Translations under genes and position numbers: made by a program | Shown: piece by piece, positions 15,638-42,342 of the stretch | Layout of the letters: the number at the start of each line of letters is the position of its first letter | How positions within the stretch are numbered: position 1 is the stretch's first letter | From: Salinivibrio siamensis | GTDB lineage: Bacteria > Pseudomonadota > Gammaproteobacteria > Enterobacterales > Vibrionaceae | Length of the DNA stretch: 55,723 bases | NCBI RefSeq assembly: GCF_001996005.1 | Contig: NZ_MUFB01000021.1 | Span: forward strand, 1 to 55,723 | Reading direction: 5' to 3' | The notes under the pieces: model-generated | Databases searched by the model: none | The model's input: only the letters and a program-made list of their open reading frames with translations | What the model was told of the DNA's origin: nothing

Positions 15638-15669
15638 CAAACGTTCTAGAACGTCTTCGTATACGAATT

Positions 15670-15688
15670 TGGTGGAGCTGGCGGGAGG
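15670..15688. repeat. Exact 19-bp copy of the ssrA 3' end (candidate attL)
   Basis: TTGGTGGAGCTGGCGGGAG is identical to the end of the intact ssrA gene at 41975-41993, in the same orientation. Direct repeats of a tRNA/tmRNA 3' end are the product of site-specific integration, so this marks the far end of at least one element whose other end is at ssrA. Confidence 0.8.
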
Positions 15689-20474: not shown

Positions 20475-21715
20475 TGTCAGATAATAAAAAGTTGTCTCAA
20501 ACTAAGCTTTTCAAAGCTGCAATAGGAGCTCCTATTCTCGTCTCAATAGTATTAGGTTACGTGCTCTACACCTATGAAGATGTGCCTAAGCTACTAGCTG
20601 ACTTTTGGACGACCTTCAGAATACCTATGACTATTGCCTCTTTGAGCATTCCTTTAGTTGCTTGGGTTACTGCTAATCACCGTTCAGAACAAACTATAAA
20701 AGGGTTAGAGTTACAAAAAGATAAACGCCTTTATGAAATGTATTACGAACAACAAAAACATTTTGAAAAGGTAATGGGGAGGCGGGTAAAGAATGCGAAG
20801 TTTAAGTATATAACAGAGGAGGATTTACCTGTGATTTTCTCGGAACTGTACGAGTTCAATCGCATCAAAGAAAAAGGCGAAGTCACCTTAAAATCGACTG
20901 CTGTAGCGGAAATGAATAGGTTCATAACTGATACAGGTGAAATCCTTTACAGCTTTTACGAGCATTTCTCGGAGCGCAAAGAAAAGAATCCCGACCAAAG
21001 ACGAGTTTTAAATAACATCATTCAGCAAATGTACACGCTTCTACAAAACAACCTCCACAAACTAAGTGATGACATAGGGTTTAAATTCATAGGCTTGCCA
21101 GATTCTAGTGTGGAAATCTTTAGAAGGGCTTATTTAGAGGTTTTGCACTTCGCATATTACATGGGTGACGACTTCAAAGAAGTGTGGGACGTACCGACAG
21201 AAGAAGACGGAAGATCTAGAGACCAGAACATACTGAATGTTTTCAGTGCCATTGAAGAAGTTATTCGTGGTCACATGGGGGTCGATGGAGAGGCAAATTT
21301 TAGTAACCTACAGAATGACGAGTCACTTAGCGAAGTTATGAAGGTGGTCAACGCGACACCTTTACAGAATCTTGTCAATAATTCATCTCGGAAGTTAATG
21401 GAAAATCTAACCAATAACTTTGAGTTTAGCGATATAGCCTTAATAGAAGGTAAATACGAAAGATACCAGTTCCCTATGAGTGAAGAGCTACCGGCATTTG
21501 AGCTGTGGTTTGATGAAATCTCAGATAATGAGGGAGATCTAGTGCTAACTACACCAGACAGCGAGCATAGAGCTAGATTCACTATCCTAGATGAGAAGGT
21601 TGAAGTTGATGGAAAAAAACAGACCAAATACACCATTGATGATGATATGGGTGAGAGATTCGAGAAGCTATCTTTTCAATCTCTCAGTTCTTTTTTTTGT
21701 AGTTCGCCAGGCTAA
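20474..21715 (+). CDS. Two-TM membrane protein of unknown function (possible defence effector)
   Basis: A 413-aa protein with two hydrophobic helices near the N-terminus (about residues 14-32, IGAPILVSIVLGYVLYTY, and 45-64, IPMTIASLSIPLVAWVTA), then a ~350-residue, mostly helical, acidic cytoplasmic region. I do not recognise a named family. The second helix followed directly by a charged helix (NHRSEQTIKGLELQKDKRLYEMYYEQQ) looks like the 2TM arrangement of several anti-phage effectors. Start at 20474 was chosen for GGTGGAG five bases upstream and the overlap with the preceding gene; GTG at 20465 is an alternative. The end of the coding region is T-rich and AT composition is high. Confidence 0.7.
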   Translation: MSDNKKLSQTKLFKAAIGAPILVSIVLGYVLYTYEDVPKLLADFWTTFRIPMTIASLSIPLVAWVTANHRSEQTIKGLELQKDKRLYEMYYEQQKHFEKVMGRRVKNAKFKYITEEDLPVIFSELYEFNRIKEKGEVTLKSTAVAEMNRFITDTGEILYSFYEHFSERKEKNPDQRRVLNNIIQQMYTLLQNNLHKLSDDIGFKFIGLPDSSVEIFRRAYLEVLHFAYYMGDDFKEVWDVPTEEDGRSRDQNILNVFSAIEEVIRGHMGVDGEANFSNLQNDESLSEVMKVVNATPLQNLVNNSSRKLMENLTNNFEFSDIALIEGKYERYQFPMSEELPAFELWFDEISDNEGDLVLTTPDSEHRARFTILDEKVEVDGKKQTKYTIDDDMGERFEKLSFQSLSSFFCSSPG

Positions 21716-22029
21716 CCTTGATAAAGCCTACAAACATTTTAGATGTTCTAGGGTTAGAAAAAGTGAGCTAGAGTAATCTGTCAAAGCACGTCCTGAATAA
21801 TCCAGTCTTAGTCATCAGAGAGAACAGACTACAAACCGACACAAGGGCTTTAGCCTCAAACGGCTTCCACCTATGCATTGTGGTTTGTCTGGTCTACCGC
21901 TCAAAGGAAATGCATGAGGAAATCATGGGGCACTGCTACTCGCCCCAACAATAGAAAGATAAGCCACCATCAATCGACAATAGTGTTTCTACTTGGCGGT
22001 TATAGGCTCCCCTAGAGGCCATAGAGTGG
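21716..22029. other. Intergenic region between convergent genes
   Basis: No gene. Contains a hairpin TGGGGC / GCCCCA near 21928-21949 that may terminate the membrane-protein operon and the convergent integrase. Nothing else recognised. Confidence 0.4.
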
Positions 22030-23718
22030 CTACTCTGCCATATGGAGTCGAGTGTCAACTGCTTCTTGCTCGTCGATGGGGTAATCTATGGTCTCTACAT
22101 GCTTCTTGAGACTAGCTATCGTCAGACCTGAGCCGTAATTGCCACTCACAGAGCTCTCTGACCATCCACCAAGTTGCTTATAAGCTACTTCAGGCACTCC
22201 AGCATTCAACGCGAGGTCTTTGAAGTTGTGTCTCAAGCTATGGAAAGTCACACGGTCTGCTCTTAGTTCATGCTTGCGACAGAAATAGGCATAGCGCTTA
22301 CTGTATATGTCTGAGCGATATCCGCCCTGTTTTGGAAGAGGAATATCGAATAGCGTCTCTGTACTCAATGACTGTACAAACTCGATGAAACCAAGGTTTA
22401 ACAGTGCGTCAGGCAGAGGCACAGATCTGGCAGAAGAGCTAGTCTTTAACGCCTTGCCGTCCTCTTCATTTACAGAGACATACCAAATGCCTTGGTGTTG
22501 CCTGATGTCTGAAGGTCTCAACTGGACGATTTCATTCATACGTAGACCACAACAAAGTGCTATTCGTACAATCCAGTAGTGCTCTGTGCCTTTGGTCAAC
22601 TGAAGTAACCTGTCGAGCATCTCTGGTGAGTATGGTCTCCGAGCATCCTTGTCCGCGACTCTTTTCTTGAGCCTCATGTTCTCTGCAGGGTTGAATGCGA
22701 TATATCGTTCTTGCATAGCGAACTTAAACATTGCAGAAATCGCTTCTAAGCGCTGATTGATGCTCGTGATAGAAAGAGGGGGAAGATGCTTCAATTGCCC
22801 GCTACTCACTACAGCTATAAGCTCAGGAGTCGTAAGATTCTTGGTCTCCTTTAACTTAGCTGAGTTACTTGGCGTGTCTATCAGTACCTTTCTCAGATTT
22901 CTTATATCTGGTGCCAAGACCTCTTTGACAGGATAGTCAGCCCCCATAAAACCAAGAAGGAACTCAATAGATACTTGATAGCGTTGCTTGAGTTTCTCAC
23001 TCATTGGCTTACCAGTTGCTACCATTTCTGTTTGCTTGTTCTCTAAGAACTCATTAGCGACATATTCAAGTGTTGGAGCTTTTTCTATCTTAGGAATTGG
23101 TTTGGTGATGGTCTTAATGTCGCTCGAGAAGCCGCTAATCGAGTCTAGGAGAGTCTGTGTCTGGGCTTTTAGGTGCTGGGCGAACTCGATGAATGCACGC
23201 GCTTTCTGTGGCTCTGTGAGCGCGTTGTACTGGCTGGTGGTTCGGTCAGGGATGGCTCCCTCAAAAACACGTTGTACGCGAGGTGCATCAGCTAGTTTTA
23301 GGCTGTCGTGTAGCATTCCTGCTGCATGTTCTTGAATGGCGTCTAAGCTTGCTTCTAACCCGTTCCGTATGCCCTCAACATCGACAGAGCCAGTTAGCAT
23401 GTTGTCCTGCTTGTCTTTTACCCACGTATTGGCGGCTTCAATGGCAATGTTCTGAAGGTCGACCAGCTCAACTCTCTTCTCTGGTACAGAATAGCCACTG
23501 AGCTCCGCGAACTCTTTCATCAGGCGACCAGCCTCGATGGTGGCTAGTTGTTTGGCTTGTGTCTTGTTCGAGGTCTTCAAAGAGAAGCGAATAAGGCGCT
23601 TGCCATAGTGCTCGACTAGGCGGCTAGGAACTCGCTTTTGGAAATAGTAAACGCTGCTGTTTTTACGTTTGTATATGTGCAAATCGTCGCCCGTGTAGCT
23701 CAGCTGCGTATCACACAT
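22030..23718 (-). CDS. Tyrosine recombinase / integrase with DUF6538-like N-terminus
   Basis: A ~562-aa integrase. The N-terminus (LHIYKRKNSSVYYFQKRVP) resembles the arm-binding domain common in long Vibrio and gammaproteobacterial integrases. The catalytic residues are present: Arg in ALCCGLRMNEIVQLRP, HSLRH box, GGWSESSVSGNYG with the Tyr. A middle core-binding domain spans about 240-370. Start at 23718 (MCDTQ) was preferred; the frame continues 16 codons upstream, with a hydrophobic, unlikely leader. The gene starts only ~60 bases from the ssrA-end-like repeat B, the expected place for an element's integrase, so B is probably its own att site. Confidence 0.92.
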   Translation of the reverse strand: MCDTQLSYTGDDLHIYKRKNSSVYYFQKRVPSRLVEHYGKRLIRFSLKTSNKTQAKQLATIEAGRLMKEFAELSGYSVPEKRVELVDLQNIAIEAANTWVKDKQDNMLTGSVDVEGIRNGLEASLDAIQEHAAGMLHDSLKLADAPRVQRVFEGAIPDRTTSQYNALTEPQKARAFIEFAQHLKAQTQTLLDSISGFSSDIKTITKPIPKIEKAPTLEYVANEFLENKQTEMVATGKPMSEKLKQRYQVSIEFLLGFMGADYPVKEVLAPDIRNLRKVLIDTPSNSAKLKETKNLTTPELIAVVSSGQLKHLPPLSITSINQRLEAISAMFKFAMQERYIAFNPAENMRLKKRVADKDARRPYSPEMLDRLLQLTKGTEHYWIVRIALCCGLRMNEIVQLRPSDIRQHQGIWYVSVNEEDGKALKTSSSARSVPLPDALLNLGFIEFVQSLSTETLFDIPLPKQGGYRSDIYSKRYAYFCRKHELRADRVTFHSLRHNFKDLALNAGVPEVAYKQLGGWSESSVSGNYGSGLTIASLKKHVETIDYPIDEQEAVDTRLHMAE

Positions 23719-23766
23719 ATGCTTTTTAACTGCTTGAAACAAAAGAACTTTTAATAAAAACAACAA

Positions 23767-29574: not shown

Positions 29575-29766
29575 ATGAGATTAATTAAACTGAGCGAAGT
29601 AAAACACATGACAGGCCTTGGCCGTTCAACCATCTACAACCTGATGAAAGACGGTACCTTCCCGAAAAGTGTGCCCCTGGGAGGTCGAGCGGTCGCGTGG
29701 GTAGAAAGTGAAGTCGAAGAGTGGGTGATGGCAAGGATCGCGGAGAGAGATAGTGAGGTGCGATAA
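29575..29766 (+). CDS. alpA: AlpA-family transcriptional activator
   Basis: A 63-aa MerR-like DNA-binding protein of the AlpA family, which activates excision genes in P4-like satellites and other islands. The sequence reads through LSEVKHMTGLGRSTIYNLMK, then GTFPKSVPLGGRAVAWVESE, both diagnostic. CGGAG ribosome site. It is divergent from radC and sits just upstream of the methyltransferase module, with its end overlapping the upstream extension of that frame. It may control excision or expression of the module. Confidence 0.93.
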   Translation: MRLIKLSEVKHMTGLGRSTIYNLMKDGTFPKSVPLGGRAVAWVESEVEEWVMARIAERDSEVR

Positions 29767-29953: not shown

Positions 29954-32677
29954 ATGGCGATTAGTCAGGCACGCATTATCGAATCCATGGAGCAGGCTTG
30001 CTCCAACCTCAATCCGAATGAGTTCATTTTCTCCTTTCTTGATGCCTACGGATTTCCGAAGAGCACCATAACTCGCCTTCGTAAAGGTGACGACAGCCGG
30101 AACGTTGCAAGCGGTAATGATATTGGGCTGAAGAAGAAGCTCTATTTCCGAACCGTTCCAGAGGGGATAGATTTGAATGCCGAAGCAGACTCGCTCAAGG
30201 CAAGCGAAGTCGTATCAAGGAACGATATCCGCTTTGTGATCGTCACTGACTTCAAGAGCCTGGTTGCCTTCGATATCAAGGCAGAAGAGCGCCTTGAAAC
30301 CAGCATGGATGAACTTGACAAACAGTATGCCTTCTTTCTCCCGCTGGCTGGGTATGAGAAAGCGGTCATGTACTCAGAACATCCAGCTGACGTTAAAGCC
30401 TCTGAGAAGATGGGGCGGCTGTTTGATTTGATCCGCGAGCGCAATGACCTATCGAAGCCTGAGGACATTCACGCGCTCAACGTTTTCCTTACCCGCCTCT
30501 TGTTCTGCTTCTACGCCGAAGACACTGGCATCTTCGCTCAGGGCCAGATGACATCTGCCATTCAGTCAACGACGCAGGAAGATGGCTCTGACGTAGATCA
30601 GTTTTTCTCAGATCTCTTCACTGTCCTGAATCTGGATGATAAGGCACCTGAGCGAGCATCTATGGCTGCTCACTTCCAGGAGTACCCCTACGTCAATGGT
30701 GGCCTTTTTGAGGCAGATGAGCCCATCCCCGAATTTGGACGAAAAGCCCGGAGACTCTTGATTGATTGCGGGAGCATGGATTGGTCTGAGATAAATCCAG
30801 ATATCTTTGGCTCGATGTTCCAGGCAGTCATTGATGAAGAACAACGGGGAAGTCTGGGGCAGCATTACACCTCTGTCTCCAACATCATGAAGGTAATTCA
30901 GCCTCTATTCCTCGACAAACTTTATGCTGAGCTTGAGAAGAGCCGGAAAAACGGGCGAAAACTGAAAAAATTGCTTATGCGGCTCCAGAATCTGCGCATT
31001 TTTGATCCGGCATGCGGTTCCGGAAACTTCCTGATCATTGCGTACAAAGAGCTTCGCAAGCTAGAAATGCAAGTCATTGATGCGCTAAACAAAGTCTCGG
31101 ATCAGACTGAAATGTATTACTCAGGGATTAAGCTGTCCCAGTTCCATGGTATCGAGATCGATGATTTTGCGCACGAAGTCGCTGTTTTGTCTCTCTGGTT
31201 AGCAGAACATCAGATGAATATGGCTTTTAAAGAGATGTTCGGGTACGCAGAGGCAGCGCTTCCACTTCGAGACTCCGGCAATATTAGTTGCGGAAACGCT
31301 CTCCGCGTTAATTGGGAAGAAGTATGCCCCTTAATAGAGTCAGGGGAGGCGGGCCATGAGCTCTATATTTGCGGCAACCCTCCATTCTCAGGCCGAGGAA
31401 ATAGATCTGAAGAACAATTGGCAGAGATGAGTGATATTTTCAAAGGTTTTAAGCATTACAAAACGTTGGATTATGTTTCGTGCTGGTTCATTCTAGGCGC
31501 CAGAATGGCAAAAAAATATGATGCCGAAATAGCATTTGTCAGCACTAACTCTATATGTAAGGGCGAGCAGGCGGGCTTGTTATGGCCTGAAATATTTAAA
31601 CAAGGAGTGGATATCCATTTCGCTCACCAAACGTTTAGCTGGAAAAATAGCGCAAAAGATAACGCCGGCGTTCATGTTGTAATAGTTGGCCTATCTACTC
31701 ACCCTGAAGATAAGTTTTTATACGATGGAATTCATAAAGCTCATGTTCGCAATATTAGCGCCTACCTGACAGAAGGCGCTAGTGATGCGGTGGTGGCGAG
31801 AGAGGCCTCTGTTTCGAAGGCTCCTAAAATGCTATTTGGTAGCATGCCTCGGGATGGCGGACACCTTTTGCTTTCCGATGTTGAGAAAAAAACCTTAGAA
31901 ACTCAATCTCCAGCTGTTTCAACTTTTATTAAAAGAATATATGGAGCTTCCGAATTTTTAAATGGGAAAACACGCTGGTGCCTTTGGCTTAAAGATGCAA
32001 GCGAGGATATCCTGAAATTACCTGGCGTTAGTGAGCGCGTTGAAGCAGTCCGTGCTATGCGAAGTAAAAGCAAGGCAGCTTCTACCAGAGAGTGGTCAAA
32101 ACTGCCTCATTTGTTTGTTCAAATGGCTCAACCCGAATCAGGAAGTTATATTTTGGTGCCTCGCGTCTCATCTGAGCGAAGGGAGTATATCCCTATTGGG
32201 CTCATGGATGCTTCCCATGATGTATGCAGTGATGCAAATCTGTTTATTCCGAATGCTACCCTTTACGAATTCGGCATCCTTACATCCGAAATGCACAACG
32301 ACTGGATGCGCACCGTCGCAGGACGTTTAGAGAGTCGGTACCGCTATTCTGCCACGCTGGTTTACAACACATTCCCTTGGCCCGAAGTTAATGATCGGCA
32401 GCGAAAGAAAATCGAAGAGCTTGCCGAGGAAGTCCTTCTTGTGCGTGAGGATTATCCCGACAAATCCTTATCAAAGCTTTACGACCCAAAAGAAATGCCG
32501 GAGCCACTTCGAGAAGCTCATAAGGCCTTGGATCGTGCTGTCGAGAAACTTTATCGAGACAAACCATTCAGAGATGCAACCGAACGTTTGGAACACCTCT
32601 TCGCCCGTTACGAAAAATTGATTGCTGAAGAAAAAGTGAAGAAACCTGCCAAGAAAACAGCCAAAGGGAGTAATTGA
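29954..32677 (+). CDS. MmeI-like class I DNA methyltransferase (module gene 1)
   Basis: A 907-aa DNA adenine methyltransferase of the MmeI/type IIL-like group. Motif I FDPACGSGNFL lies at about residue 349 and the catalytic NPPF at about 475, with the HGIEIDDFAHEVAVLSLWLA motif between. The C-terminal third (YRYSATLVYNTFPWPE) is the usual target-recognition end. The N-terminal 120 residues (NDIRFVIVTDFKSLVAFD) occupy the place of the MmeI nuclease, but I see no D...E-x-K. Start chosen at 29954 for AGGAGT eight bases upstream; the open frame starts 67 codons earlier. The helicase gene begins two bases after its stop. Confidence 0.88.
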   Translation: MAISQARIIESMEQACSNLNPNEFIFSFLDAYGFPKSTITRLRKGDDSRNVASGNDIGLKKKLYFRTVPEGIDLNAEADSLKASEVVSRNDIRFVIVTDFKSLVAFDIKAEERLETSMDELDKQYAFFLPLAGYEKAVMYSEHPADVKASEKMGRLFDLIRERNDLSKPEDIHALNVFLTRLLFCFYAEDTGIFAQGQMTSAIQSTTQEDGSDVDQFFSDLFTVLNLDDKAPERASMAAHFQEYPYVNGGLFEADEPIPEFGRKARRLLIDCGSMDWSEINPDIFGSMFQAVIDEEQRGSLGQHYTSVSNIMKVIQPLFLDKLYAELEKSRKNGRKLKKLLMRLQNLRIFDPACGSGNFLIIAYKELRKLEMQVIDALNKVSDQTEMYYSGIKLSQFHGIEIDDFAHEVAVLSLWLAEHQMNMAFKEMFGYAEAALPLRDSGNISCGNALRVNWEEVCPLIESGEAGHELYICGNPPFSGRGNRSEEQLAEMSDIFKGFKHYKTLDYVSCWFILGARMAKKYDAEIAFVSTNSICKGEQAGLLWPEIFKQGVDIHFAHQTFSWKNSAKDNAGVHVVIVGLSTHPEDKFLYDGIHKAHVRNISAYLTEGASDAVVAREASVSKAPKMLFGSMPRDGGHLLLSDVEKKTLETQSPAVSTFIKRIYGASEFLNGKTRWCLWLKDASEDILKLPGVSERVEAVRAMRSKSKAASTREWSKLPHLFVQMAQPESGSYILVPRVSSERREYIPIGLMDASHDVCSDANLFIPNATLYEFGILTSEMHNDWMRTVAGRLESRYRYSATLVYNTFPWPEVNDRQRKKIEELAEEVLLVREDYPDKSLSKLYDPKEMPEPLREAHKALDRAVEKLYRDKPFRDATERLEHLFARYEKLIAEEKVKKPAKKTAKGSN

Positions 32678-32679
32678 TC

Positions 32680-34746
32680 ATGGCTGATCTGATGACGGTC
32701 CAGTACAAGCAAACTGGCAAGAGTTCGAACTTGAACGAATTGGGTATGCGGGAGATGCAAGCTCGGGCGTATGAGGCTCGTGAGGCTCAATACCTTCTCT
32801 TGAAAGCGCCTCCTGCCTCCGGGAAATCCCGAGCCCTGATGTTCCTCGGATTGAACAAATTGCACCACCAGGGGCTCAAAAAAGTCATCGTAGCCGTGCC
32901 CGAAATGTCCATTGGTGGCTCTTTCAAGGACACCGACCTCAAAAGCGCAGGCTTCTTTGCCGACTGGAAGGTGCATCCCAGCTACAACCTCTGTGTACCT
33001 GGCGGGGAGGATCGCAAGGTCAAAGCCTTTATCCGTTTCATGTCTGACCCGGACGCAGACGTTTTGATCTGCACCCATGCAACTCTGCGGTATGCCTACA
33101 AAGAGCTGGCTCCTTCGGACTTCAACGAAACGTTGCTGGCGATTGATGAATTCCACCATACCTCAGCGGACGGTGAAAATCGGCTTGGCGAGCTTATTGA
33201 TGGCGTCATGGCGGGCTCCAATGCCCATATTGTGGCAATGACGGGCTCATACTTCCGTGGCGACGCCGTTCCGATTCTCCTGCCAGAGGACGAAGAGAAG
33301 TTTACCCAGGTCACCTACACCTACTACGAACAGCTCAATGGCTACAGGTATCTGAAGTCACTTGGTATCGGCTATCACTTCTACACCGGTCGCTACCTGG
33401 ATGCTGTGCATGAGGTGCTGGACACCTCGAAGAAGACGATCGTTCATATTCCAAACGTCAACGCGGTCGAGTCCACGAAGGACAAGTATTCTGAGGTCGA
33501 TTACATTCTCGATGCTATCGGTGAGGTCGTCGAGAAGGATATGAAGACTGGGATTATTACGGTGAAAGACCAGTCTGGCCGGCTTCTAAAGGTTGCCGAT
33601 CTGGTTGACGATAACCCACTTCGGGTAGAGGTTCAGAACTACCTCAGGAATGTGTCGAAAGCAGATGACATGGATATCATTATTGCCTTGGGCATGGCGA
33701 AGGAAGGCTTTGACTGGCCGTGGTGCGAGCATGTGCTGACCATCGGTTATCGATCTTCGCTCACGGAAATTATCCAAATTATCGGCCGTGCCACTCGCGA
33801 CTCGGAAGGCAAGTCACACGCCCAGTTTACCAACTTGATTGCCCAGCCAGACGCAGAGGATGACGACGTCAAAACGTCGGTCAACAACATGCTCAAGGCC
33901 ATCACCGTATCGCTGCTGATGGAGCAGGTCTTGGCACCCGCCGTGAACTTCAAGCCGAGGTCTCGGATACGGCCTGGCGAGGAAGTTGACCCCGGCACCG
34001 TGGTCATTGAAGACACCACATCGCCTGTCTCCGACAAAGTCATGAAGGCCCTGGAGAACATGGACAACATCAAAGCCGCTATCCTTCAAAAGCCTGAAGT
34101 CATTGCACCAGCTGTGACAGGCGACGATGATCCAGAGGTGATGGAGCAGGTGGAAATTCCAAAGGTCGTGGAAACGCTTTACCCAGGCATGGATGACAGT
34201 GAGATAAGCACTGTCTCAGAAGCCGTACATGCTTCCATGGCCATCCAGTCTACAGGAGGACTGTTCGATGAGTCTGACCTGCCTGAAGACGCTCAGATCA
34301 TGACTCCTGAGGGTGTTCAAGAAGATGCGCCGGATTACCAAGGGGGCACCGAGAAACCATCGAAAACCGACGTTGGTGCCGGGAGCGATGAGCCCAAGCC
34401 GAATCGCAAGTTTGTGCTGATTGGGAACAAGTTCGTCAATATCGAGAACCTCAATGTCGATCTGATTCGTCAGGTGAATCCCTTCCAGGGTGCCTATGAG
34501 ATCCTATCAAAATCCGTCACACCATCGGTTCTCAAGACCATACAGGACACCGTGGTTGGTATGCGATCACAGATGTCTGAAGAAGAGGCCGTTATTCTCT
34601 GGCCGCGAATCAATGAGTTCCGCAAGGAGAAAGGCCGAGAGCCTTCTGTGACGGCTAGTGAGCCGTATGAGCGCCGTTTGGCGGATGCACTGGCTTACAT
34701 CAAGAGAAAGGCTCAGGAGCGCAAGGCTCAGGCACAGACGTCGTAA
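32680..34746 (+). CDS. SF2 DEAD/DEAH-like helicase (module gene 2)
   Basis: A 688-aa superfamily 2 ATPase. Walker A APPASGKSRAL lies near residue 43, motif II is DEFHH near 155, motif III-like AMTGSYFRGD follows, and the second RecA domain has ALGMAKEGFDWPW and QIIGRATRD near 366. This resembles the restriction-type ATP-dependent translocases. About 280 C-terminal residues are unassigned and include an acidic linker (APAVTGDDDPEVMEQVE) and a lysine-rich tail. It shares the hexapeptide SKTDVG with the next protein. GGGAG ribosome site, start 2 bases after the methyltransferase stop, 12 bases before the nuclease gene: a single operon. Confidence 0.88.
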   Translation: MADLMTVQYKQTGKSSNLNELGMREMQARAYEAREAQYLLLKAPPASGKSRALMFLGLNKLHHQGLKKVIVAVPEMSIGGSFKDTDLKSAGFFADWKVHPSYNLCVPGGEDRKVKAFIRFMSDPDADVLICTHATLRYAYKELAPSDFNETLLAIDEFHHTSADGENRLGELIDGVMAGSNAHIVAMTGSYFRGDAVPILLPEDEEKFTQVTYTYYEQLNGYRYLKSLGIGYHFYTGRYLDAVHEVLDTSKKTIVHIPNVNAVESTKDKYSEVDYILDAIGEVVEKDMKTGIITVKDQSGRLLKVADLVDDNPLRVEVQNYLRNVSKADDMDIIIALGMAKEGFDWPWCEHVLTIGYRSSLTEIIQIIGRATRDSEGKSHAQFTNLIAQPDAEDDDVKTSVNNMLKAITVSLLMEQVLAPAVNFKPRSRIRPGEEVDPGTVVIEDTTSPVSDKVMKALENMDNIKAAILQKPEVIAPAVTGDDDPEVMEQVEIPKVVETLYPGMDDSEISTVSEAVHASMAIQSTGGLFDESDLPEDAQIMTPEGVQEDAPDYQGGTEKPSKTDVGAGSDEPKPNRKFVLIGNKFVNIENLNVDLIRQVNPFQGAYEILSKSVTPSVLKTIQDTVVGMRSQMSEEEAVILWPRINEFRKEKGREPSVTASEPYERRLADALAYIKRKAQERKAQAQTS

Positions 34747-34758
34747 GAGGGATATGAG

Positions 34759-36066
34759 ATGCCACCGATCAATCACAACAGACGAAAAGCCGCAGATCGG
34801 CCTTCACTGGACGATATATTTGCTGGCCCGGATGAGTTCGGTCTTCTTGACGTTGAGGCCAAGAAATCAAGCTCGGGTGCGCCTCTTGAAGTGTCTCGAT
34901 TTGAAGAGATTAGCATGTTCGTCGATCAGAAAGGAAAAGCTCCGCAGGCTGATGGACGTGACCTCCTGGAAAAGCGTCTCGCCCGACGACTAAAGAGCTA
35001 CACAGCGCGAGAAGATCTGTTGTCGGCTCTGAAGCCATACGACCGCCACAATCTGCTGCCCGAGCCCGCAGCGTCGAATCAGGAGGCCACCCTACATGAT
35101 GAGGAGAGGCCTTCTCACGCTTCTAGCGAACCTAGTGAGCGAACTTCGAAAACAGATGTGGGTCAGGCGGAAAACGTCACATCACTTGATGACATTTTTG
35201 CGAGCGAGGCATTCTCAGAGTTTGATCAAGGAGAAGACTCCATCTTTGACCCTGTTCATGTCTCATTCGACAAAAGCCGAGAGGAGCCAGATGAGATCGC
35301 TCAGCGGCGTGTATGCCAGGATTTCTATGCGTTTGAACCAATATTCAGGGATCTGCACGAGAAGCTGAAAACTGGCGACGTGAAGGCAGCCCGCTTCCAG
35401 CAGGCTTCACAAGTTCAGCCGGGTGACGCCTTTATACTGGAAGGCGTCATGTGTCTAGTAGATGAGGTTGGCGAGTACCGAGAAGATAACCAGGGACGAT
35501 ACGATCCACGCTTGCGCATCATTTTCGAGAATGGAACGGAGTCCAACCATCTCTTACAGTCGCTGGCAAAACGCCTTTACCAGGAGCCTACTGGACGGAG
35601 AATCATCCGTGATGCTGAGTCGATCGTCGATGCCTTCAACAATGTGAACCACAAGGATAAGAGGGTTGGCCAAATTTATTTCGTCACGACGTTGAGCGAT
35701 AAGCCAGCACTTAGGGAAATTCCGAATCTACTGAAAATTGGTTATACCGAACTGACGGTGGATGAGCGGACAAAAAATGCGGAGCGAGATACAGCGTTCC
35801 TCGAAGCACCGGTCAAAAAGCTCGCGTCGATAGAGTGCTACAACTTGAATCCGAACAAGTTTGAGACCCTCATTCATGGGTTCTTGCACGCTCAGCGAAT
35901 TAAGATGACGCTCACCGGAAAAGACGGAAAAGAATATCACCCGAAAGAATGGTTCTCTGTTCCGCTCGAAACCGCTCGAGAAGTCGTAAAACGAATCATT
36001 GATGGAAGTATTGTTGATTACCGTATGGACAATACTACTGGGCGATTGGTGAAGAAAAAGGTATGA
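34759..36066 (+). CDS. GIY-YIG (T5orf172-like) nuclease protein (module gene 3)
   Basis: A 435-aa protein with a C-terminal GIY-YIG nuclease of the T5orf172 type at about residues 303-405: VGQIYFV, then NLLKIGYTE, a conserved Arg in DERTKNAERD, and Glu369 in KFETLIHGFL, matching the GIY...YIG...R...E-x3-H pattern. The N-terminal 180 residues look disordered and acidic and contain the short motif SLDDIF twice (16-21 and 142-147) and SKTDVG (130-135), which suggest docking peptides. A middle domain (about 190-280) is unassigned. It is the likely cutting subunit of the three-gene module. Confidence 0.85.
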   Translation: MPPINHNRRKAADRPSLDDIFAGPDEFGLLDVEAKKSSSGAPLEVSRFEEISMFVDQKGKAPQADGRDLLEKRLARRLKSYTAREDLLSALKPYDRHNLLPEPAASNQEATLHDEERPSHASSEPSERTSKTDVGQAENVTSLDDIFASEAFSEFDQGEDSIFDPVHVSFDKSREEPDEIAQRRVCQDFYAFEPIFRDLHEKLKTGDVKAARFQQASQVQPGDAFILEGVMCLVDEVGEYREDNQGRYDPRLRIIFENGTESNHLLQSLAKRLYQEPTGRRIIRDAESIVDAFNNVNHKDKRVGQIYFVTTLSDKPALREIPNLLKIGYTELTVDERTKNAERDTAFLEAPVKKLASIECYNLNPNKFETLIHGFLHAQRIKMTLTGKDGKEYHPKEWFSVPLETAREVVKRIIDGSIVDYRMDNTTGRLVKKKV

Positions 36067-36465: not shown

Positions 36466-36876
36466 TTACTCAACGTACTTATCATATGCCCGTTCTTCGC
36501 AGAGAGCATGCCACACCGCTTGCGGAATTAGCTTTCTCGCCCAACCATAGTAACCCCACGTTTTAGTTAGATCTTCCTGCCAGCAATCGTCGCAGATCAA
36601 GGAATGATAATGGACTCGACCCGCCATTATATCCATATAGATCTCGTGGAGACTCTTTGGATTGTTGCAATAGCATTTGAACTTTTTATCTCGAGTTCTA
36701 TCGGCGAGAGGACCGACTAACCTCTGGTAGATGAAGGGGTAGTTTTTCTTCAACCGTTGATGAACCGCATCCAAGACATCAACTCTTTCTTTGCCTAGGG
36801 CATTATTACGAAGACGTAACAGATCCTCTTCTGAGTCATATCGCCCTTGGTGGATTCTGGATACTAGGCCCGTCAT
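36466..36876 (-). CDS. Small Cys-containing partner of the Rad50-like ATPase
   Basis: A 136-aa basic protein of no recognised family. Near the middle it has paired cysteines, CYCNNPKSLHEI and then CDDCW about 35 residues later, which could hold a zinc ion. The start at 36876 is preceded by GGGGGG at good distance; the ATG 5 codons upstream has no ribosome site. It begins 36 bases after the stop of the ATPase gene on the same strand, so the two form an operon. A nuclease, RNA-binding or adapter role is possible; nothing in the sequence decides. Confidence 0.6.
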   Translation of the reverse strand: MTGLVSRIHQGRYDSEEDLLRLRNNALGKERVDVLDAVHQRLKKNYPFIYQRLVGPLADRTRDKKFKCYCNNPKSLHEIYMDIMAGRVHYHSLICDDCWQEDLTKTWGYYGWARKLIPQAVWHALCEERAYDKYVE

Positions 36877-36911
36877 TGAATTTCCCCCCATTTATAATGC
36901 TTTACTTACCG

Positions 36912-39569
36912 TTATATGCCAGAAACGGAACTTCCGCTCGTATCATTTAGGGCAACGTCCAAACTTTCTAAAGCAGAAATTACCTCGTTGACAGTATGCT
37001 GGTCGAACTCAGGTAGGTCAGTCTCGTCATGTGTACCTTTGTTCAAGTACGACCAATATGCGTTTCTTCCATCTTGACCTAGCACAGCAGTGAGAGCAGA
37101 CACTATCGGCTCTTTGTTAGGTATATTTGACTGGGAGCAATTCAGCTTAGATCTTAGATTTTCAGCTAATGCCCTTAGATCCCATGCCGCCGAAGGAGAA
37201 CGACGAGAGACACTAATCAGCTTGTCCTTCTTATCACTATGCTTTCCGTAATGAAACCAAGTTTTTTCACATAAGTTCTCTAGCGCTCTTCTTGCCGACA
37301 TCAACGCGTCACGATACTCCCCTTGTGCATATAGTTCTCGTGCAGCTAATACATAATTTTTTGGTCGCCTTAATGAGTCAACTTGAATATGGTCTTCGCC
37401 AGCGCTTGATAAGAAAATATATGATTGAGACGCAAGTGACTGACTCTTACCTAGCAGTTGATGTGTGTTATTAAAGAACTCCTCACCATGCACTGCCAAA
37501 ATTATCTGACAACCTTTGAAAAAATCATCAGCAAATAAGGTTTCCCTTATGGCACGACGATGCTCATCATCAATTGCGTTCACTGGATCGTCAAAAATAA
37601 GCACCGGACAACGCTCTTTTATGTTCTTGGCAAGCAATATTGCTAGCCCAAGGCAACGGATATGCCCCTCACTCATAACATGAAGAGCATCAAATAAGGC
37701 AGAAGGGTCTTTCAAAAATGCAATGCCCAGCCGTTGATTTTGAGATAACGGAAGTTGAACAGAAGCTAATTTATCTGATTCTGAATCATAACGATTAAAA
37801 GCATTGTAAAGTCTCACAACTAGGTCGCCCAGGTCAGCAATTAACTGGCTCGGCAATCGATTCTTATATGCATTCAATCTTTCGACAAAGCTCTTATAAG
37901 AAGATGCAATCTCTTGATTTTTTTGCACTTTGGCATGCTCAGCAGCCACATCAGCTATAAGTTCAGCATTCTCCGTATCAAAACTAGTGATTGCCTGTTG
38001 CGCAGCAATAATTGCTTGTTTAGCTGTGTTTCTGCGTGTTTCTAAGACAGTGATTTGATCTTTAAACCAGCGTAAACGATTTAGCTCAGTTTGCTTGGTT
38101 GAACGTATTTGAGCGTCCTGGTCAGTCTTTTTGTCGGCTTCCTCGAGATACTTTACCTGAGCGTACAGGTGCTGCCATGGCGTAAAACCATCCGCTAACT
38201 GTTGCTGCAAGGAGTGCCACCATCCGATATCGACTTGTGAGCCAGGTGAAGTTTGAAAATTTTGGATAGCATTGTTTTGTGGCAGAAACGTCAAACAAAC
38301 ATTCAATATTTGCGAGAGGTCCAGCAACCATTGACTAACATTTTGTTGAAGCCGTTGTGCCGTTTTCTGAAGTTCTGCCAAGTGTTGCAGCTTTTGAAGT
38401 TCTTCATTAGCGTTACCGTAAGGGTTTACGGATACTTGGTTGAGCGGCGTTTTACACGCTGGGCAATGCTCTGGACTATTCGATTGTAGCTGAACAACTG
38501 CGTCGTATAGATTCTTGAATGATACCTCCTGACTTGCATTTTCCAAGTCTTTTTGATTCAACTCCAGCTCTCTGAGGTCGCCGCTAATGGAGCTACCAAG
38601 TGTCTGTAATGCGCTAATTGTTAAGTTGGTTTTATTTGCTTGGGGCTGTTGCAAATCGGTTTCTAGTCGCTGGATTGCTCCTGCATTTTCATCATCACCG
38701 TTTAGTTCAAAGACCAATTGGCTAAAGGTTGCTCCGTCACGGTACTGTGTGGCTAATGCTTGCTCCTCAACATTTAGTGTTTGCAGCTCTGCATTGTTAG
38801 TCGCTATCTGCTGCTGAGAACCAGAAAGTGCCTGCCTTTTTGTCGCTAACTGAGCTGCTTTAACACCAGTAAGATCAATATATTTTGGGTCAAACTCAGA
38901 GGTAAAATTGCGTACAAAGTCATTGAAAGAGTCTAATCCAAATAACGTTGATATAAGCTCTGTTTGCTTGGCGGGTGCCTGAGCGGCAATTCTGGAAAAG
39001 TTATCGATACGATTTTTTTCAACGAAACAAAATCTAAATAGTCCCTCATTTGCTTCAATTTCAACCTCAGTGCTTTGCTCGTTTAAGCCTGTAACAACAG
39101 GCGTAGCAAAACGATTAGCATGTGCGTTTTTCAGGTAACCACCCTGATCTCGAAAACGCTTGTTTTCCGCTTCAGCCACGTTACCCAGCAGGCTATATTC
39201 GAGGGCTTCGCAGAAGCTAGATTTTCCAGTACCGTTTGGTCCGTATATGAGGACTAAACGGCTTTCTAAATCAAAAATCTCTTGCCTAGAGAAACCACGG
39301 AATGGCCCCACAGCCATACTTTTTAACTGAGTAATCGGATAGGTTTTCTCGGCAGTTATATCGGGTACAGACTGAACCTCAATGCTTAAGGAATCCCATT
39401 TAGCCTGGGCCAAGGCAACCATTTTCTTAACCCGCTGGCCTTGATGGGTTCCGAGGGGAGTAAGTTCATCAAGGTTTTCTAAGACGAGGTTCGCGATCTT
39501 TCGCTCTCCCGGAAGAGATTCGTCTGAATCTAGAGTTCGCAAAAATCGTACATACTCAGACTCAATCAT
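36912..39569 (-). CDS. Rad50/SMC-like ATPase with zinc-hook motif
   Basis: An 885-aa SMC-family-like ATPase (AAA_23 type). Walker A GPNGTGKSSFCEALEYSLLG lies at residues 110-129, a long coiled-coil middle follows, interrupted by CPAC (about 368) resembling a Rad50 zinc hook, then the signature region (LHVMSEGHIRCLGLAILLA) and Walker B VLIFDDPVNAID near 655. About 150 further residues (from YVLAARELYAQGEYRDALMS on) form a separate helical domain. Such ATPases sense or process DNA ends and are found in several defence systems (for example Lamassu, RloC, Septu-like groups). I could not assign it to one of these: no anticodon nuclease signature is visible. Confidence 0.82.
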   Translation of the reverse strand: MIESEYVRFLRTLDSDESLPGERKIANLVLENLDELTPLGTHQGQRVKKMVALAQAKWDSLSIEVQSVPDITAEKTYPITQLKSMAVGPFRGFSRQEIFDLESRLVLIYGPNGTGKSSFCEALEYSLLGNVAEAENKRFRDQGGYLKNAHANRFATPVVTGLNEQSTEVEIEANEGLFRFCFVEKNRIDNFSRIAAQAPAKQTELISTLFGLDSFNDFVRNFTSEFDPKYIDLTGVKAAQLATKRQALSGSQQQIATNNAELQTLNVEEQALATQYRDGATFSQLVFELNGDDENAGAIQRLETDLQQPQANKTNLTISALQTLGSSISGDLRELELNQKDLENASQEVSFKNLYDAVVQLQSNSPEHCPACKTPLNQVSVNPYGNANEELQKLQHLAELQKTAQRLQQNVSQWLLDLSQILNVCLTFLPQNNAIQNFQTSPGSQVDIGWWHSLQQQLADGFTPWQHLYAQVKYLEEADKKTDQDAQIRSTKQTELNRLRWFKDQITVLETRRNTAKQAIIAAQQAITSFDTENAELIADVAAEHAKVQKNQEIASSYKSFVERLNAYKNRLPSQLIADLGDLVVRLYNAFNRYDSESDKLASVQLPLSQNQRLGIAFLKDPSALFDALHVMSEGHIRCLGLAILLAKNIKERCPVLIFDDPVNAIDDEHRRAIRETLFADDFFKGCQIILAVHGEEFFNNTHQLLGKSQSLASQSYIFLSSAGEDHIQVDSLRRPKNYVLAARELYAQGEYRDALMSARRALENLCEKTWFHYGKHSDKKDKLISVSRRSPSAAWDLRALAENLRSKLNCSQSNIPNKEPIVSALTAVLGQDGRNAYWSYLNKGTHDETDLPEFDQHTVNEVISALESLDVALNDTSGSSVSGI

Positions 39570-40570
39570 AATACTTCCTTAGATTCCATTTCTTCATTTT
39601 CTGAAGAGCCTCTCCGGGTTTCTTGTGGTGGGTCTCCAGCCTCCAAATTTGCATAGACTCTCCTATTTCCTAACGGTTGTAATAGTGCATATGCTATCTA
39701 TCTCAACTCAAACATTCACACTAATCCCAAACGAAACTTTTCAAGGGTATTATTCCGATAGCTTCTATTTTCTCGTCCTAGGTTAGCATGAGCCTGTCAA
39801 GAAGAACGCGCACGTTATTTGGTTTCAAATTAACCATCCAGGGTGTAGCCATGCCATCAGCGATCAGTACCAGTAGGTACCTAACATGCCGCCTAGTTGG
39901 CGTCACTGGAGTTAGTCTATCAACGGCTGTTTTGGTTTTCGTGCGCTGTTGTCCAAACTGTTAGATAAACCATATTTTGTGAACTGGCTGCAAAAATATT
40001 GCTAGGGACACAAAGAGGAGTTACTTAGGTAGGCTCTGTGTGACTGATTGGAGCGAGGGCTTATCAACGTCAGTTAAAAATTGACCCACCCACACGCTTA
40101 TCCTGTCCTGCGTGACAGGGTAGGTGTGTTGGTATGTATAGCTGAAGAATAATTGGCGCTACACAGGTCGGGTGATTGACATAACTTCGCTACAAGGAAG
40201 AGCCGACTCGTTAGACTTGAGAAACGAAAGATAAAATAGTTGCCTCTGAAGGCAATAGAGGCAGGTCAGTGATCAGTTGATAGGCTTTTCACCTTAATCT
40301 ACATCGATCAGCTAAAAGCCAACAACAGACCCAACATCTGTACATTCATGCAGGCTAAGTAAAGAGCCTGGATGGCAATGAGATTTGAGGGTTTTAATGG
40401 TCCCCGTACCCCATGCCGTACCCAGAGCGATTTTTGGTTGATTTAAATGACCGTAAATCCCTTATTTGATGCGCTCTAACCACACCCCCGCTTCGGTATA
40501 GTGGGTAGATTGCTTGGCCCCCATGCGGGGTCAGAGTATTCAGGTAGCGTGTTTTTATCAGGGTCTACGG
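39570..40570. other. One-kilobase non-coding stretch upstream of the P4-type integrase end
   Basis: No supported gene. It includes a stem-loop CCTGTC / GACAGG (40102-40119), a short stem GTACC / GGTAC near 39867, and many stop codons in all frames. The left part must contain the promoter of the Rad50-like operon. It may hold decayed mobile-element sequence. Confidence 0.4.
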
Positions 40571-41809
40571 TTAGATCACTTTAAGCTGCTTAGTCCCAGT
40601 CACAGAGAGGCTCCCTTTAGCTGCTTGCTCGATGTGTCCACTCCACCAGCACATCATTGGGCGTCGGCGTTCGATGTAGTCTGTCCGGTTATATGCACTC
40701 CGTACCTGGTTGTCATCAACGTGGGCAAGTGCGGACTCGATAAGGTCTGCATCAAAACCCTGCTCGTTGAGTGTAGTACTTGCCAGGGAGCGTAGCCCAT
40801 GACTCACTAGCCGGTCGGCAAACCCCATTCGTTTTAGTGCCATATTGGCCGTTTGGCTATTACAAGGTTTTTGCGGATCACGATCTGAAGGAAATATAAA
40901 ATCACGATGACCACTTATCGGCTTGATCACTTCTAATATCGCCAGCATCTGCTCTGTGAGTGGGATCCGGTGTTCTCTTCTTTTTTTTGTCCTCTCCGCC
41001 GGGATAATCCATAGTTCGTTATCCCAGTCTATTTCATCCCATCGCGCAGCTGCCGCTTCTGCTGGTCGTGTCATGGTGTGTAGCTGCCATTCGATTAGGC
41101 ACCGGGTAACCCGTTTAATATTCGCGTAAGCAAGCTTTTGCATTAACTCTGGTAGTTCATCGGGAGTTAGCGCTGCCATATGGTTCTTTTTGGGCTTTTT
41201 GAATGCAGCGCCAATGCCCGATAACGGATTAGCGTGGATAAGGCCACAGTTAACCGCGTAGTTCATCATTTCGTTTAGTCGTTGGACCAAACGCTTTAAT
41301 GTCTCTAGGCTGCCCGATGCTTCAATGGGCTTTAAGGCATCTATCACCATAGGGGCAGTGATTTTGGAAAGGGGAGTAGCGCCAAGCTTTGGAAAAATGT
41401 GACGTTCCAGAGAGCGCCATATATCGGTCGCGTATCCCTCAGTCACTTGCTCTTTTTTCAGCTCGAACCACTGGTAGGCGACTTTCTCTACCGTATGCTC
41501 GGTGAGCGCAATCTCTTGCCTTTGTTGCTCTTCACGGTGTTCCTTAGGATCGATGTTTTGAGCGAGGAGGGCTCTTGCATCCATGGTCGCTTTACGCGCT
41601 TGAGAGAGGGTAACAGTGGGATAGGCACCGAGGCTGAGGTTGGTGCGCTTTTTGGTGAATGGGCGCAGGTAATTAAAAAGCCAAAGCTTAGAGCCGGTTG
41701 GTTTAACTCTTAATCTGAGCCCGTCGCCATCATAGAGTAGGTACTCTTTCTCTTCTGGCGTTGCCGCTTTTATCTTCTTATCCGTAAGCTTAGCTATGAT
41801 TTTAGCCAT
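40571..41809 (-). CDS. int: P4-type tyrosine integrase (DUF4102 N-terminus)
   Basis: A 412-aa integrase of the P4/CP4-57 family, the group that typically inserts into tRNA and ssrA genes. The N-terminal arm-binding DUF4102 domain is clear (KLTDKKIKAATPEEKEYLLY then LRPFTKKRTNLSLGAYPTV). Catalytic residues: Arg in TMTRPAEAAAARWDEID, SHGLRSLAST for HxxR, His in LAHVDDNQVRSAYNR with the Tyr nearby. It reads away from ssrA, with its start ~170 bases from the tmRNA 3' end, the standard position. Several GTGTAC-type repeats between the two are likely arm sites. It is the probable mover of the 23.78-41.97 kb element. Confidence 0.96.
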   Translation of the reverse strand: MAKIIAKLTDKKIKAATPEEKEYLLYDGDGLRLRVKPTGSKLWLFNYLRPFTKKRTNLSLGAYPTVTLSQARKATMDARALLAQNIDPKEHREEQQRQEIALTEHTVEKVAYQWFELKKEQVTEGYATDIWRSLERHIFPKLGATPLSKITAPMVIDALKPIEASGSLETLKRLVQRLNEMMNYAVNCGLIHANPLSGIGAAFKKPKKNHMAALTPDELPELMQKLAYANIKRVTRCLIEWQLHTMTRPAEAAAARWDEIDWDNELWIIPAERTKKRREHRIPLTEQMLAILEVIKPISGHRDFIFPSDRDPQKPCNSQTANMALKRMGFADRLVSHGLRSLASTTLNEQGFDADLIESALAHVDDNQVRSAYNRTDYIERRRPMMCWWSGHIEQAAKGSLSVTGTKQLKVI

Positions 41810-41966: not shown

Positions 41967-41975
41967 ATATAAAAT

Positions 41976-42342
41976 TGGTGGAGCTGGCGGGAGTTGAACC
42001 CGCGTCCAGAATCAGTCTAACCAATGGCGCTACATGCTTAGTTTGTCTTTAATCTCGTCAGTGTGCTGCGGACAAACACGCCACACAAAGACATACCCAA
42101 CTTAGTTTTAACGCTTCAGCTCTTGGGTCAAAGCATCCACGCGATCCTGTTTGGTTTTGACTATCCTGAATCCCCGTCCTACAGGCGGAGGCTAGGGAGG
42201 ATAGGCACTCAACAGGTTATTAAGCTGCTAGTGCGTAGTTTTCGTCGTTTGCGACTATTTTTTTGCGGCTTTTTACGAGGCCAACCGCCCCTCGGCATGC
42301 TCCACGGGCCTTCTCAATCCTGTCGAATCCTGAATCAGCCCC
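41976..42342 (-). ncRNA. ssrA: tmRNA (transfer-messenger RNA)
   Basis: Rescues stalled ribosomes together with SmpB. The gene is 367 bases long on the minus strand. Its 5' end begins GGGGCTGATTCAGGATTCGA, its 3' end is GGTTCAACTCCCGCCAGC followed by TCCACCA (the CCA is encoded). The tag codons lie at 42220-42252 and give ANDENYALAA followed by TAA TAA. The tRNA-like end forms the attachment core of the island, and the integration has left the gene complete. smpB lies immediately upstream. Confidence 0.98.

What the first reader, a model, noticed from the sequence alone, without database searches (positions are those of the whole stretch)
29954..36066. Three-gene methyltransferase / SF2 helicase / GIY-YIG module
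An MmeI-like DNA methyltransferase, an SF2 translocase-like ATPase and a GIY-YIG (T5orf172) nuclease are packed with gaps of 2 and 12 bases. In MmeI-type enzymes nuclease and methylase are one protein and no ATPase is needed; here translocation and cutting look outsourced. I do not recognise this combination as BREX, DISARM, or a standard type I-III system, so it may be a distinct restriction architecture.
Basis: partly seen in the sequence, partly recalled or inferred. Interest (0 to 1): 0.85.

Follow-up and report, generated by a model that had tools for sequence, protein, structure and literature searches.

The report
Split restriction module with swappable targeting
Three neighbouring genes on a mobile island encode a DNA-marking enzyme that has lost its own cutting site, a DNA motor and a separate DNA cutter; this is a known but little-understood bacterial gene cluster (dnmA-yeeB-yeeC), and its relatives show signs of being a working, re-targetable defence against foreign DNA.

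Summary
The trio is real and intact: MmeI-like m6A methyltransferase (29954-32677), SF2 translocase (32680-34746), GIY-YIG/T5orf172 protein (34759-36066); gaps 2 and 12 bases. The architecture is not new. It matches the dnmA(yeeA)-yeeB-yeeC cluster of Bacillus subtilis, described in print as a nuclease-less MmeI homologue flanked by helicase and GIY-YIG genes and proposed to be Type I-like restriction. New evidence here: (1) 59 of 59 partnered MmeI proteins with an N-terminus lack the D/E/K nuclease triad; 27 of 28 without detected partners keep it, the exception being cut by a contig end; a quick tree makes this one ancient split. (2) In close relatives the rear methylase plus target-recognition part is replaced, while the dead nuclease domain, translocase and nuclease stay similar. 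(3) In Ligilactobacillus plasmids an inversion interrupts or restores yeeA. (4) In two viral contigs yeeA has also lost its methylase motifs and sits beside a twin m5C methylase. Best reading: an ATP-dependent, specificity-switching restriction-modification system. Restriction by this copy is untested, and the B. subtilis cluster tested negative.

The parts
29954..32677 (+). yeeA/dnmA-like gene: MmeI-family m6A DNA methyltransferase and target-recognition protein, 907 aa; nuclease triad lost
   Evidence: Pfam MmeI_N/hel/Mtase/TRD/C; NPPF motif; D/E/K absent
29954..30439 (+). dead PD-(D/E)XK-derived N-terminal domain (aa 1-162), the likely docking platform
   Evidence: MmeI_N aa 14-162; pairwise identity tracks YeeB, Spearman 0.89; docking is inference
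31274..32386 (+). replaced specificity cassette (about aa 441-811: rear of MTase domain plus TRD)
   Evidence: identity falls from about aa 440 on against L002, L005, L163 and recovers between about aa 760 and the C-terminus, depending on the pair
32680..34746 (+). yeeB-like gene: SF2 ATPase/translocase, 688 aa (ATG start; TTG 32674 also possible)
   Evidence: Walker A PPASGKSRA, DEFHH, MTGSYFRG and QIIGRxTRD motifs invariant or nearly so in 38 sequences
34759..36066 (+). yeeC-like gene: N-terminal helical domain, SH3/EF-P-like barrel (about aa 205-285), C-terminal GIY-YIG (T5orf172/MUG113) domain (about aa 302-435)
   Evidence: G304, Y307, K326, G328, R337, E369, H373, E397, W398 invariant in 41 sequences
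29575..29766 (+). AlpA-type regulator upstream of the trio
   Evidence: PF05930 1.6e-26; similarity to same-genus genome G399 begins inside it
40571..41809 (-). tyrosine integrase of the island
   Evidence: NF007246 5.9e-163, over its cut-off
15669..15687 (.). 19-bp direct repeat, distal attachment-site copy
41975..41993 (.). 19-bp direct repeat at the 3' end of tmRNA, proximal attachment-site copy; island = 26,325 bp

Best explanation
[quoted passage not shown] YeeA binds an asymmetric site through its TRD and methylates one adenine on one strand (family knowledge; the motifs are shown here). Its N-terminal nuclease domain is dead and most likely serves as the dock for the restriction partners (inferred from its co-divergence with YeeB). 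On unmodified DNA YeeB is engaged and translocates along double-stranded DNA using ATP (inferred from motifs and fold), and YeeC cuts with its GIY-YIG site (residues shown, activity inferred), probably away from the site and after two complexes meet, as in type ISP/III/I enzymes (inference: single-strand modification leaves one daughter site unmodified after replication, so a two-site rule is needed). Specificity is changed by replacing the cassette of YeeA while YeeB and YeeC stay constant (shown as sequence mosaicism). The module travels as cargo on an ssrA-integrated island here, and on plasmids and predicted viral contigs elsewhere.
For: Same order and strand in 22 of 22 loci of the 398-genome sample that were fetched and hold YeeB; plasmid records: 263 with a YeeB match (153 covering at least 80%), 229 with a YeeC match (188). 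Nuclease triad lost in 59 of 59 partnered, kept in 27 of 28 without detected partner. The eight genomes of the first sample with only partner-less MmeI had no YeeB match at E<=1e-3 (at most two candidates per genome were scored). Cassette replacement: window vs L002, L005, L163; over 52 triples pairwise identity to YeeB correlates with N domain 0.89, spacer 0.85, front MTase 0.84, YeeC 0.83 but TRD-N only 0.22; of 44 pairs with YeeB >=80% identical, 42 have TRD-N <=54%. GIY-YIG-type residues of YeeC invariant in 41 sequences, YeeB motifs invariant or nearly so in 38. Invertible segment in yeeA of Ligilactobacillus plasmids. Methylase-dead yeeA next to a twin m5C methylase, where the TRD is instead the best-conserved part. 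Published: deletion of V. crassostreae dnmA and yeeB homologues raised sensitivity to some phages, as reported in PMC9973331.
Against: In B. subtilis, deletions of dnmA, yeeB or yeeC did not change infection by the three phages tested, loss of dnmA did not change plasmid transformation, and the DnmA motif is not under-represented in phage genomes; the authors call the cluster a relic. The nuclease-loss/partner association is one split on the tree, so 59 vs 27 is not replicated evolution. TRD variability also occurs in partner-less MmeI (14 of 15 pairs), so cassette replacement alone does not prove restriction by YeeBC; the 44 close pairs are not independent. The cassette border is not sharp in every pair: against L005 third-base identity also dips in the spacer. 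Sequences in the two conservation alignments were chosen by score. No interaction, ATPase, nuclease or methylation assay exists for this copy; the fold search of YeeC matched only the SH3/EF-P-like barrel, weakly, and a profile search for YeeB found LGP2-type helicases, not type ISP enzymes.
Confidence: 0.68

Rival explanations
1. Orphan methylase with relic partners: YeeA serves gene regulation and YeeB/YeeC no longer restrict, as proposed for B. subtilis.
For: B. subtilis deletion data and lack of motif avoidance in phages in PMC7261158 and PMC9973331.
Against: YeeB and YeeC keep their motif residues, invariant or nearly so, in 38 and 41 sequences; they are 97% and 89-91% identical to L002 and L005 while YeeA's cassette is replaced; cassette replacement and on/off inversion would scramble a regulon (inference).
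Confidence: 0.13
2. Methylation-sensing module that is not classical restriction: YeeBC act on stalled or modified DNA, or kill the host (abortive infection), with the T5orf172 domain as a DNA binder rather than a nuclease.
For: The T5orf172 domain is called largely uncharacterised in PMC9973331; some loci carry further defence-like genes between yeeA and yeeB (RhuM/PDC-S05 in L041, PD-(D/E)XK_4 in L044 and L056).
Against: Invariant GIY-YIG-type Y307, K326, R337, E369 (their catalytic role is recalled); the m5C variant pairs a well-conserved TRD with a separate methylase, which fits protection of a recognised site.
Confidence: 0.14
3. An ordinary type IIL MmeI enzyme with chance neighbours.
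For: PADLOC's best model for gene 1 alone is a type IIG enzyme (997.9 bits).
Against: Nuclease triad absent; conserved trio in 22 of 22 fetched YeeB-bearing loci of the first sample.
Confidence: 0.02

Closest known systems
dnmA(yeeA)-yeeB-yeeC cluster, Bacillus subtilis (PMC7261158, PMC9973331)
   Same: Nuclease-less MmeI-like m6A MTase, then SF2 helicase, then C-terminal T5orf172/GIY-YIG protein, same order, horizontally acquired setting.
   Different: Different host; the B. [quoted passage not shown] the B. subtilis sequences themselves were not aligned here.
Type IIL enzyme MmeI (PDB 5hr4)
   Same: Homology of YeeA over aa 83-905 (phmmer 1.1e-199); same domain order.
   Different: D70/E80/K82 nuclease triad (PMC4833311, passages) absent; two extra genes, one an ATPase.
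Type ISP enzymes LlaGI/LlaBIII
   Same: Works like: MTase/TRD plus SF2 translocase plus nuclease; the best single-sequence PDB hit of YeeB is LlaBIII, weak (E 0.0026); a profile search gave LGP2 instead.
   Different: Type ISP is one polypeptide with its own nuclease domain (recalled); here three genes and a GIY-YIG domain.
Type I restriction-modification
   Same: A restriction part that depends on the MTase part is the proposal in print.
   Different: No HsdS hit among those shown; nuclease and motor are separate proteins.
MADS (methylation-associated defence)
   Same: Partial PADLOC hits only: mad2 8.6e-21 to aa 83-415 of YeeA; mad1 1.9e-4 to AlpA.
   Different: NCBIfam MAD2 scored 20.4 bits against a cut-off of 720; no MADS gene set found beside the trio among the hits shown.

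Membership tests
DnmA-YeeB-YeeC cluster | MmeI-like m6A MTase lacking the nuclease motif | tested here: met
   (m6A inferred from family and NPPF)
DnmA-YeeB-YeeC cluster | SF2 helicase gene at position +1 and C-terminal T5orf172/GIY-YIG gene at +2, same strand | tested here: met
   order as stated in PMC9973331
DnmA-YeeB-YeeC cluster | sequence orthology to the B. subtilis proteins themselves | not tested
   B. subtilis sequences not fetched; only the control genome rang for MmeI_TRD
Type IIL (MmeI) | fused PD-(D/E)XK nuclease triad | tested here: not met
Type ISP | nuclease, translocase, MTase and TRD in one polypeptide | tested here: not met
   three ORFs
Type I R-M | HsdS specificity subunit and HsdR with fused nuclease-motor | tested here: not met
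   motor and nuclease domains on separate ORFs; PADLOC showed only weak type I MTase and REase-MTase cross-hits (list for gene 1 capped at 25 of 45)
BREX | PglX over cut-off together with PglZ/BrxC | tested here: not met
   NCBIfam PglX models 14.5-30.9 bits against cut-offs of 400-900; no PglZ or BrxC in the NCBIfam and Pfam lists for the 10 proteins scanned between 27.4 and 41.8 kb
DISARM | drmA/drmB/drmC with drmMI/MII | tested here: not met
   DrmMI cross-hits of the MTase only (best 108.7 bits); no DrmA/B/C among hits shown, two of the ten lists being capped at 25
ATP-dependent restriction system (function) | ATP-driven, methylation-sensitive DNA cleavage | not testable with these tools
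   needs biochemistry

The most novel reading that the evidence does not exclude
YeeABC is an active, widespread class of ATP-dependent restriction in which losses have turned MmeI step by step into a pure targeting scaffold: first the nuclease was handed to YeeB/YeeC, with the dead nuclease fold kept as their dock, and in one branch (L126, L134) the methylase was handed to a twin m5C methylase as well. Targeting is re-set by cassette replacement (tandem cassettes in L105) and gated by DNA inversion inside yeeA in Ligilactobacillus.
Probability: 0.5. Interest if true: 0.78.

Novelty: new member of a known kind. Interest (0 to 1): 0.55.

Why it matters
The cluster has been in print for years, yet the tests I found reported disagree (B. 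subtilis negative, V. crassostreae positive as cited). The data here argue against 'relic' for the family at large and make the open question testable: natural on and off states of one locus, constant YeeB/YeeC with replaced recognition cassettes, and a variant in which methylation seems to be carried by another enzyme. If it restricts, surveys that label yeeA a lone type IIG enzyme or orphan methylase miss a common multi-gene system on plasmids and islands, and a constant motor-nuclease pair driven by interchangeable recognition cassettes would be a useful engineering chassis.

Tried and rejected
Protein models for the trio in defence libraries: no strong PADLOC model for YeeB or YeeC, no NCBIfam model over cut-off. 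E. coli complete genomes: no megablast match. Phage records: two partial Acinetobacter fragments of YeeB only. Solved structures by sequence for YeeC: nothing for the protein alone, two unrelated weak hits for the profile. Fold search of YeeC: the 50 rows shown are EF-P/eIF5A/Tudor-like barrels and other unrelated chains, best Z 5.9; no nuclease among the rows shown, which is inconclusive. TRD-N exchange between YeeA and nuclease-bearing MmeI: no cross-group pair above 55% identity. Further methylase-dead loci: scans of viral contigs with the two yeeA proteins returned only the same two contigs, and with the m5C protein those two plus four distant m5C matches that were not examined. The careful tree did not finish; only the quick tree was read, and it warns that the join of the partner-less group with the two methylase-dead rows may be a long-branch artefact. 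A regular-expression test for the nuclease motif gave two false matches (L043, V_2811995039) outside the motif columns, so a column test replaced it. Papers not held: Morgan 2009 and two others that I looked up by recalled DOI as the presumed V. crassostreae and defence-island papers; their content is given only as cited in PMC7261158 and PMC9973331. Literature searches listed further papers that I did not open, so 'not in print' is not claimed beyond this: no listed title concerned the inversion switch or the m5C variant. Rows dropped before counts: L003, L004, L055 (duplicates); L105 and MTases without an N-terminus from the nuclease count (69 partnered and 33 other MTases in the alignment, 59 and 28 counted); MTase ORFs of 800 aa or less and YeeB >=97% identical rows from the correlation (56 triples to 52). 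Conservation alignments A3 and A4 used 38 of 40 and 35 of 41 viral sequences listed, which were already chosen by score, plus window, L002 and L005.
Full report
WHAT IS THERE. The window carries three intact, closely packed genes: an MmeI-type DNA methyltransferase (29954-32677, 907 aa), an SF2 ATPase (32680-34746, 688 aa) and a protein ending in a T5orf172/MUG113 GIY-YIG domain (34759-36066, 435 aa), with gaps of 2 and 12 bases. The first matches MmeI from residue 83 to its end (PDB 5hr4, 1.1e-199) and all five MmeI Pfam domains. The AlphaFold model of the second (mean pLDDT 70.7; 522-622 under 50) aligns to double-strand nucleic-acid translocases: Mfd Z 22.4, rmsd 3.7, 328 residues; FANCM 21.9; RIG-I-like 21-22 (rows within 1 Z are tied). 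The model of the third (mean pLDDT 74) shows an N-terminal helical part, a disordered stretch at 106-176, an SH3/EF-P-like barrel at about 205-285 (weak, Z 5.9, rmsd 2.5, 66 residues) and the C-terminal domain. Profile comparison suggests that the YeeB C-terminus (627-677) and YeeC N-terminus (34-84) share a small helical element (probability 52%, E 1.5e-4 for that single comparison).

SETTING. The genes lie in a 26,325-bp island bounded by 19-bp direct repeats, one being the 3' end of tmRNA (15669-15687 and 41975-41993), with a tyrosine integrase beside the tmRNA gene and an AlpA-type regulator just upstream of the trio. In the same genus 3 of 8 genomes, this one included, have a YeeB homologue. 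In one of them (G399) the match to the trio is followed at once by an 85-bp match (85%) to sequence that here lies at 40064-40147, so the block at about 36.1-40.0 kb looks like an alternative cargo.

KNOWN OR NEW. The combination is published. Passages of NAR 2020 (PMC7261158) and mBio 2023 (PMC9973331) describe B. subtilis dnmA (yeeA), an MmeI homologue without nuclease motif followed by yeeB (SF2 helicase) and yeeC (T5orf172/GIY-YIG). They credit Morgan et al. 2009 with the flanking genes and a Type I-like proposal, and a survey that placed YeeB/YeeC homologues in defence islands; mBio 2023 also reports that these two families are the commonest neighbours of DnmA homologues, at positions +1 and +2. 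In B. subtilis, deletions of dnmA, yeeB or yeeC did not change infection by three phages, loss of dnmA did not change plasmid transformation, and the motif is not under-represented in phage genomes. They cite a V. crassostreae study in which deletion of dnmA and yeeB homologues raised sensitivity to some phages. I could not read the cited originals.

CO-OCCURRENCE. In 398 genomes drawn from the phylum, 51 have an MmeI_TRD match at E<=1e-3; 32 matches in 30 genomes are full MmeI-type (E<=1e-33), the rest are weak hits, mostly in longer ORFs. A close YeeB homologue (E<1e-25) is in 24 genomes, 22 of them with such an MmeI match; the other two YeeB hits are fragments at contig starts. Of the 32 MmeI loci, 22 have YeeB and YeeC downstream on the same strand and 10 do not, three of the ten being cut by contig ends. 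In a second sample of 369 genomes of the class, 9 of 32 newly fetched MmeI loci have YeeB, 8 of these with YeeC and the ninth cut by its contig end. In plasmids, 263 records match YeeB and 229 match YeeC; in viral contigs 43 and 40 loci were confirmed. In several loci other genes sit between yeeA and yeeB: a RhuM-family gene, PD-(D/E)XK_4 genes, an HTH/peptidase gene and unknowns.

THE DEAD NUCLEASE DOMAIN. MmeI cuts with D70, E80 and K82 (PMC4833311, passages). Pooled over both samples, the viral contigs, two named loci (L002, L005) and two same-genus loci (L163, L164), none of 59 partnered YeeA proteins with an N-terminus has D/E/K at those columns, while 27 of 28 MmeI proteins without detected partners do. 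The exception, L171, lies 656 bp from its contig end and groups with partnered proteins. On a quick tree of the parts that are not replaced, the 28 partner-less rows are one side of one branch (support 82), so this is most simply one ancient event, not repeated evolution. The domain was not discarded: its divergence follows that of YeeB more closely than any other part of YeeA (Spearman 0.89). I infer that it is the dock for YeeB and/or YeeC.

REPLACED SPECIFICITY. Against Vreelandella (L002), Marinobacter (L005) and same-genus G399 (L163), YeeB is 91-97% and YeeC 83-91% identical, and the N domain and spacer of YeeA 94-99%; the front of the MTase domain is 88% (L005) and 91% (L163), and 82-92% by 40-residue blocks for L002. 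The rear MTase part then falls to 46-50% (L005, L163) and TRD-N to 39-46% (all three), with a recovery toward the C-terminus that differs between pairs. At codons with unchanged amino acid, third-base identity is 65-94% before residue 400 and 26-68% inside the cassette for L002 and L163. For L005 it is 44-89% before, with a dip in the spacer at 201-320, and 20-58% inside. I read this as replacement by recombination rather than selection on a few residues; the L005 border is less clean. Over 52 non-redundant triples the TRD-N identity is nearly unrelated to YeeB identity (0.22; TRD-C 0.51). Of 44 pairs with YeeB at least 80% identical, 42 have TRD-N at most 54% (pairs are not independent). Partner-less MmeI also varies there (14 of 15 pairs with spacer >=72%, against 392 of 403 partnered), so the trait is inherited from MmeI. 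What is specific here is that YeeB and YeeC go with many different cassettes, as expected if they read specificity only through YeeA. L105 shows a tandem duplication of this unit in one ORF, with 88% and 94% identical borders; it is one metagenomic contig and an assembly error is possible.

SWITCH AND VARIANT. In Ligilactobacillus salivarius plasmids a segment of about 290 bp of yeeA (spacer region) is flanked by inverted repeats (15 bp perfect in L154, an 11-base core in all five loci looked at). 18 plasmid records carry the segment. Judged by strand against its flanks, in 14 it has the orientation of L154 and in 4 the opposite one. Of the 14, two were fetched and have yeeA split by the reversed segment. 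Of the 4, three were fetched and have yeeA annotated as one gene followed by yeeB and yeeC, the reading frame being checked in one; the fourth is split by the record start. Nine of the 14 come from one source, Meles meles, so they are not independent. In L126 and L134 yeeA has lost SAM motif I (NPDSSSGDC) and the catalytic motif (NTQY) as well as the nuclease, while yeeB and yeeC follow intact. Directly behind, on the other strand, is a protein with two m5C methylase domains, each keeping its PCQ motif. In this pair the trend reverses: TRD-N 72% and TRD-C 81% against N 51% and front MTase 62%, as expected if the target must match a separate methylase. It is one pair of contigs.

MECHANISM. Shown: gene identities, conserved motifs, loss of the MmeI triad, mosaic structure, synteny. 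From family knowledge: asymmetric site, one-strand m6A (MmeI; DnmA GACGAG, PMC7261158). Inferred: docking by the dead domain, translocation, two-site triggering, cutting by YeeC. The negative B. subtilis tests are the main evidence against; [quoted passage not shown] I hold restriction-modification at 0.68; the corrections made in checking did not require a change.

VERDICT. It is a well-preserved member of a known but unresolved cluster. The added value is evidence that the family is a live, re-targetable system, plus two natural variants that make this testable.

Noticed in passing
window 36466-39569 (-): SMC/RecF-like ATPase of 885 aa with a 141-aa gene beside it; best PADLOC match LmuB of Lamassu (4.7e-27), small gene unmatched. 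Seems absent from the otherwise similar G399 island.
   Followed up: partly
L126:6384-13950 and L134:6371-14021: yeeA with degenerate methylase and nuclease sites, yeeB and yeeC intact, followed by a convergent twin-domain m5C methylase and a small HTH gene; L134 also has a Vsr-like endonuclease gene.
   Followed up: yes
L154:9469-9761 (NZ_LT604075) and 17 other Ligilactobacillus salivarius plasmid records: Invertible segment inside yeeA, 14 of 18 records in the L154 (interrupting) orientation by strand. A site-specific integrase with hsdS/hsdM-like genes lies upstream in L154 and L155 and may be the invertase.
   Followed up: yes
L105:4973-8950: One yeeA ORF with two tandem specificity cassettes (motif IV to C-terminus), possible recombination intermediate or assembly error.
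   Followed up: partly
L037 and L048, between yeeA and yeeB: Related inserts of about 7 kb in two genomes of one family; in L037 scanned genes include an HTH/M78 peptidase and a DUF1828 protein, and L048 has ORFs that begin alike.
   Followed up: partly
L041, L044, L056 between yeeA and yeeB: RhuM-family gene (PADLOC PDC-S05) in L041 and PD-(D/E)XK_4 genes in L044 and L056 (PDC-S26 for L044), inserted in the operon.
   Followed up: partly
window YeeB aa 627-677 and YeeC aa 34-84: The two partner proteins seem to share a small helical element, perhaps a common docking part.
   Followed up: partly
L157 (Acinetobacter baumannii pD46-3): A C-terminal yeeA-like fragment is annotated beside an ISAba1 copy and a resistance region; described only.
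   Followed up: no
window 17178-23766: Further integrase-family genes (17178-18320, 22030-23766) and a resolvase (18803-19354) inside the island's left part.
   Followed up: no
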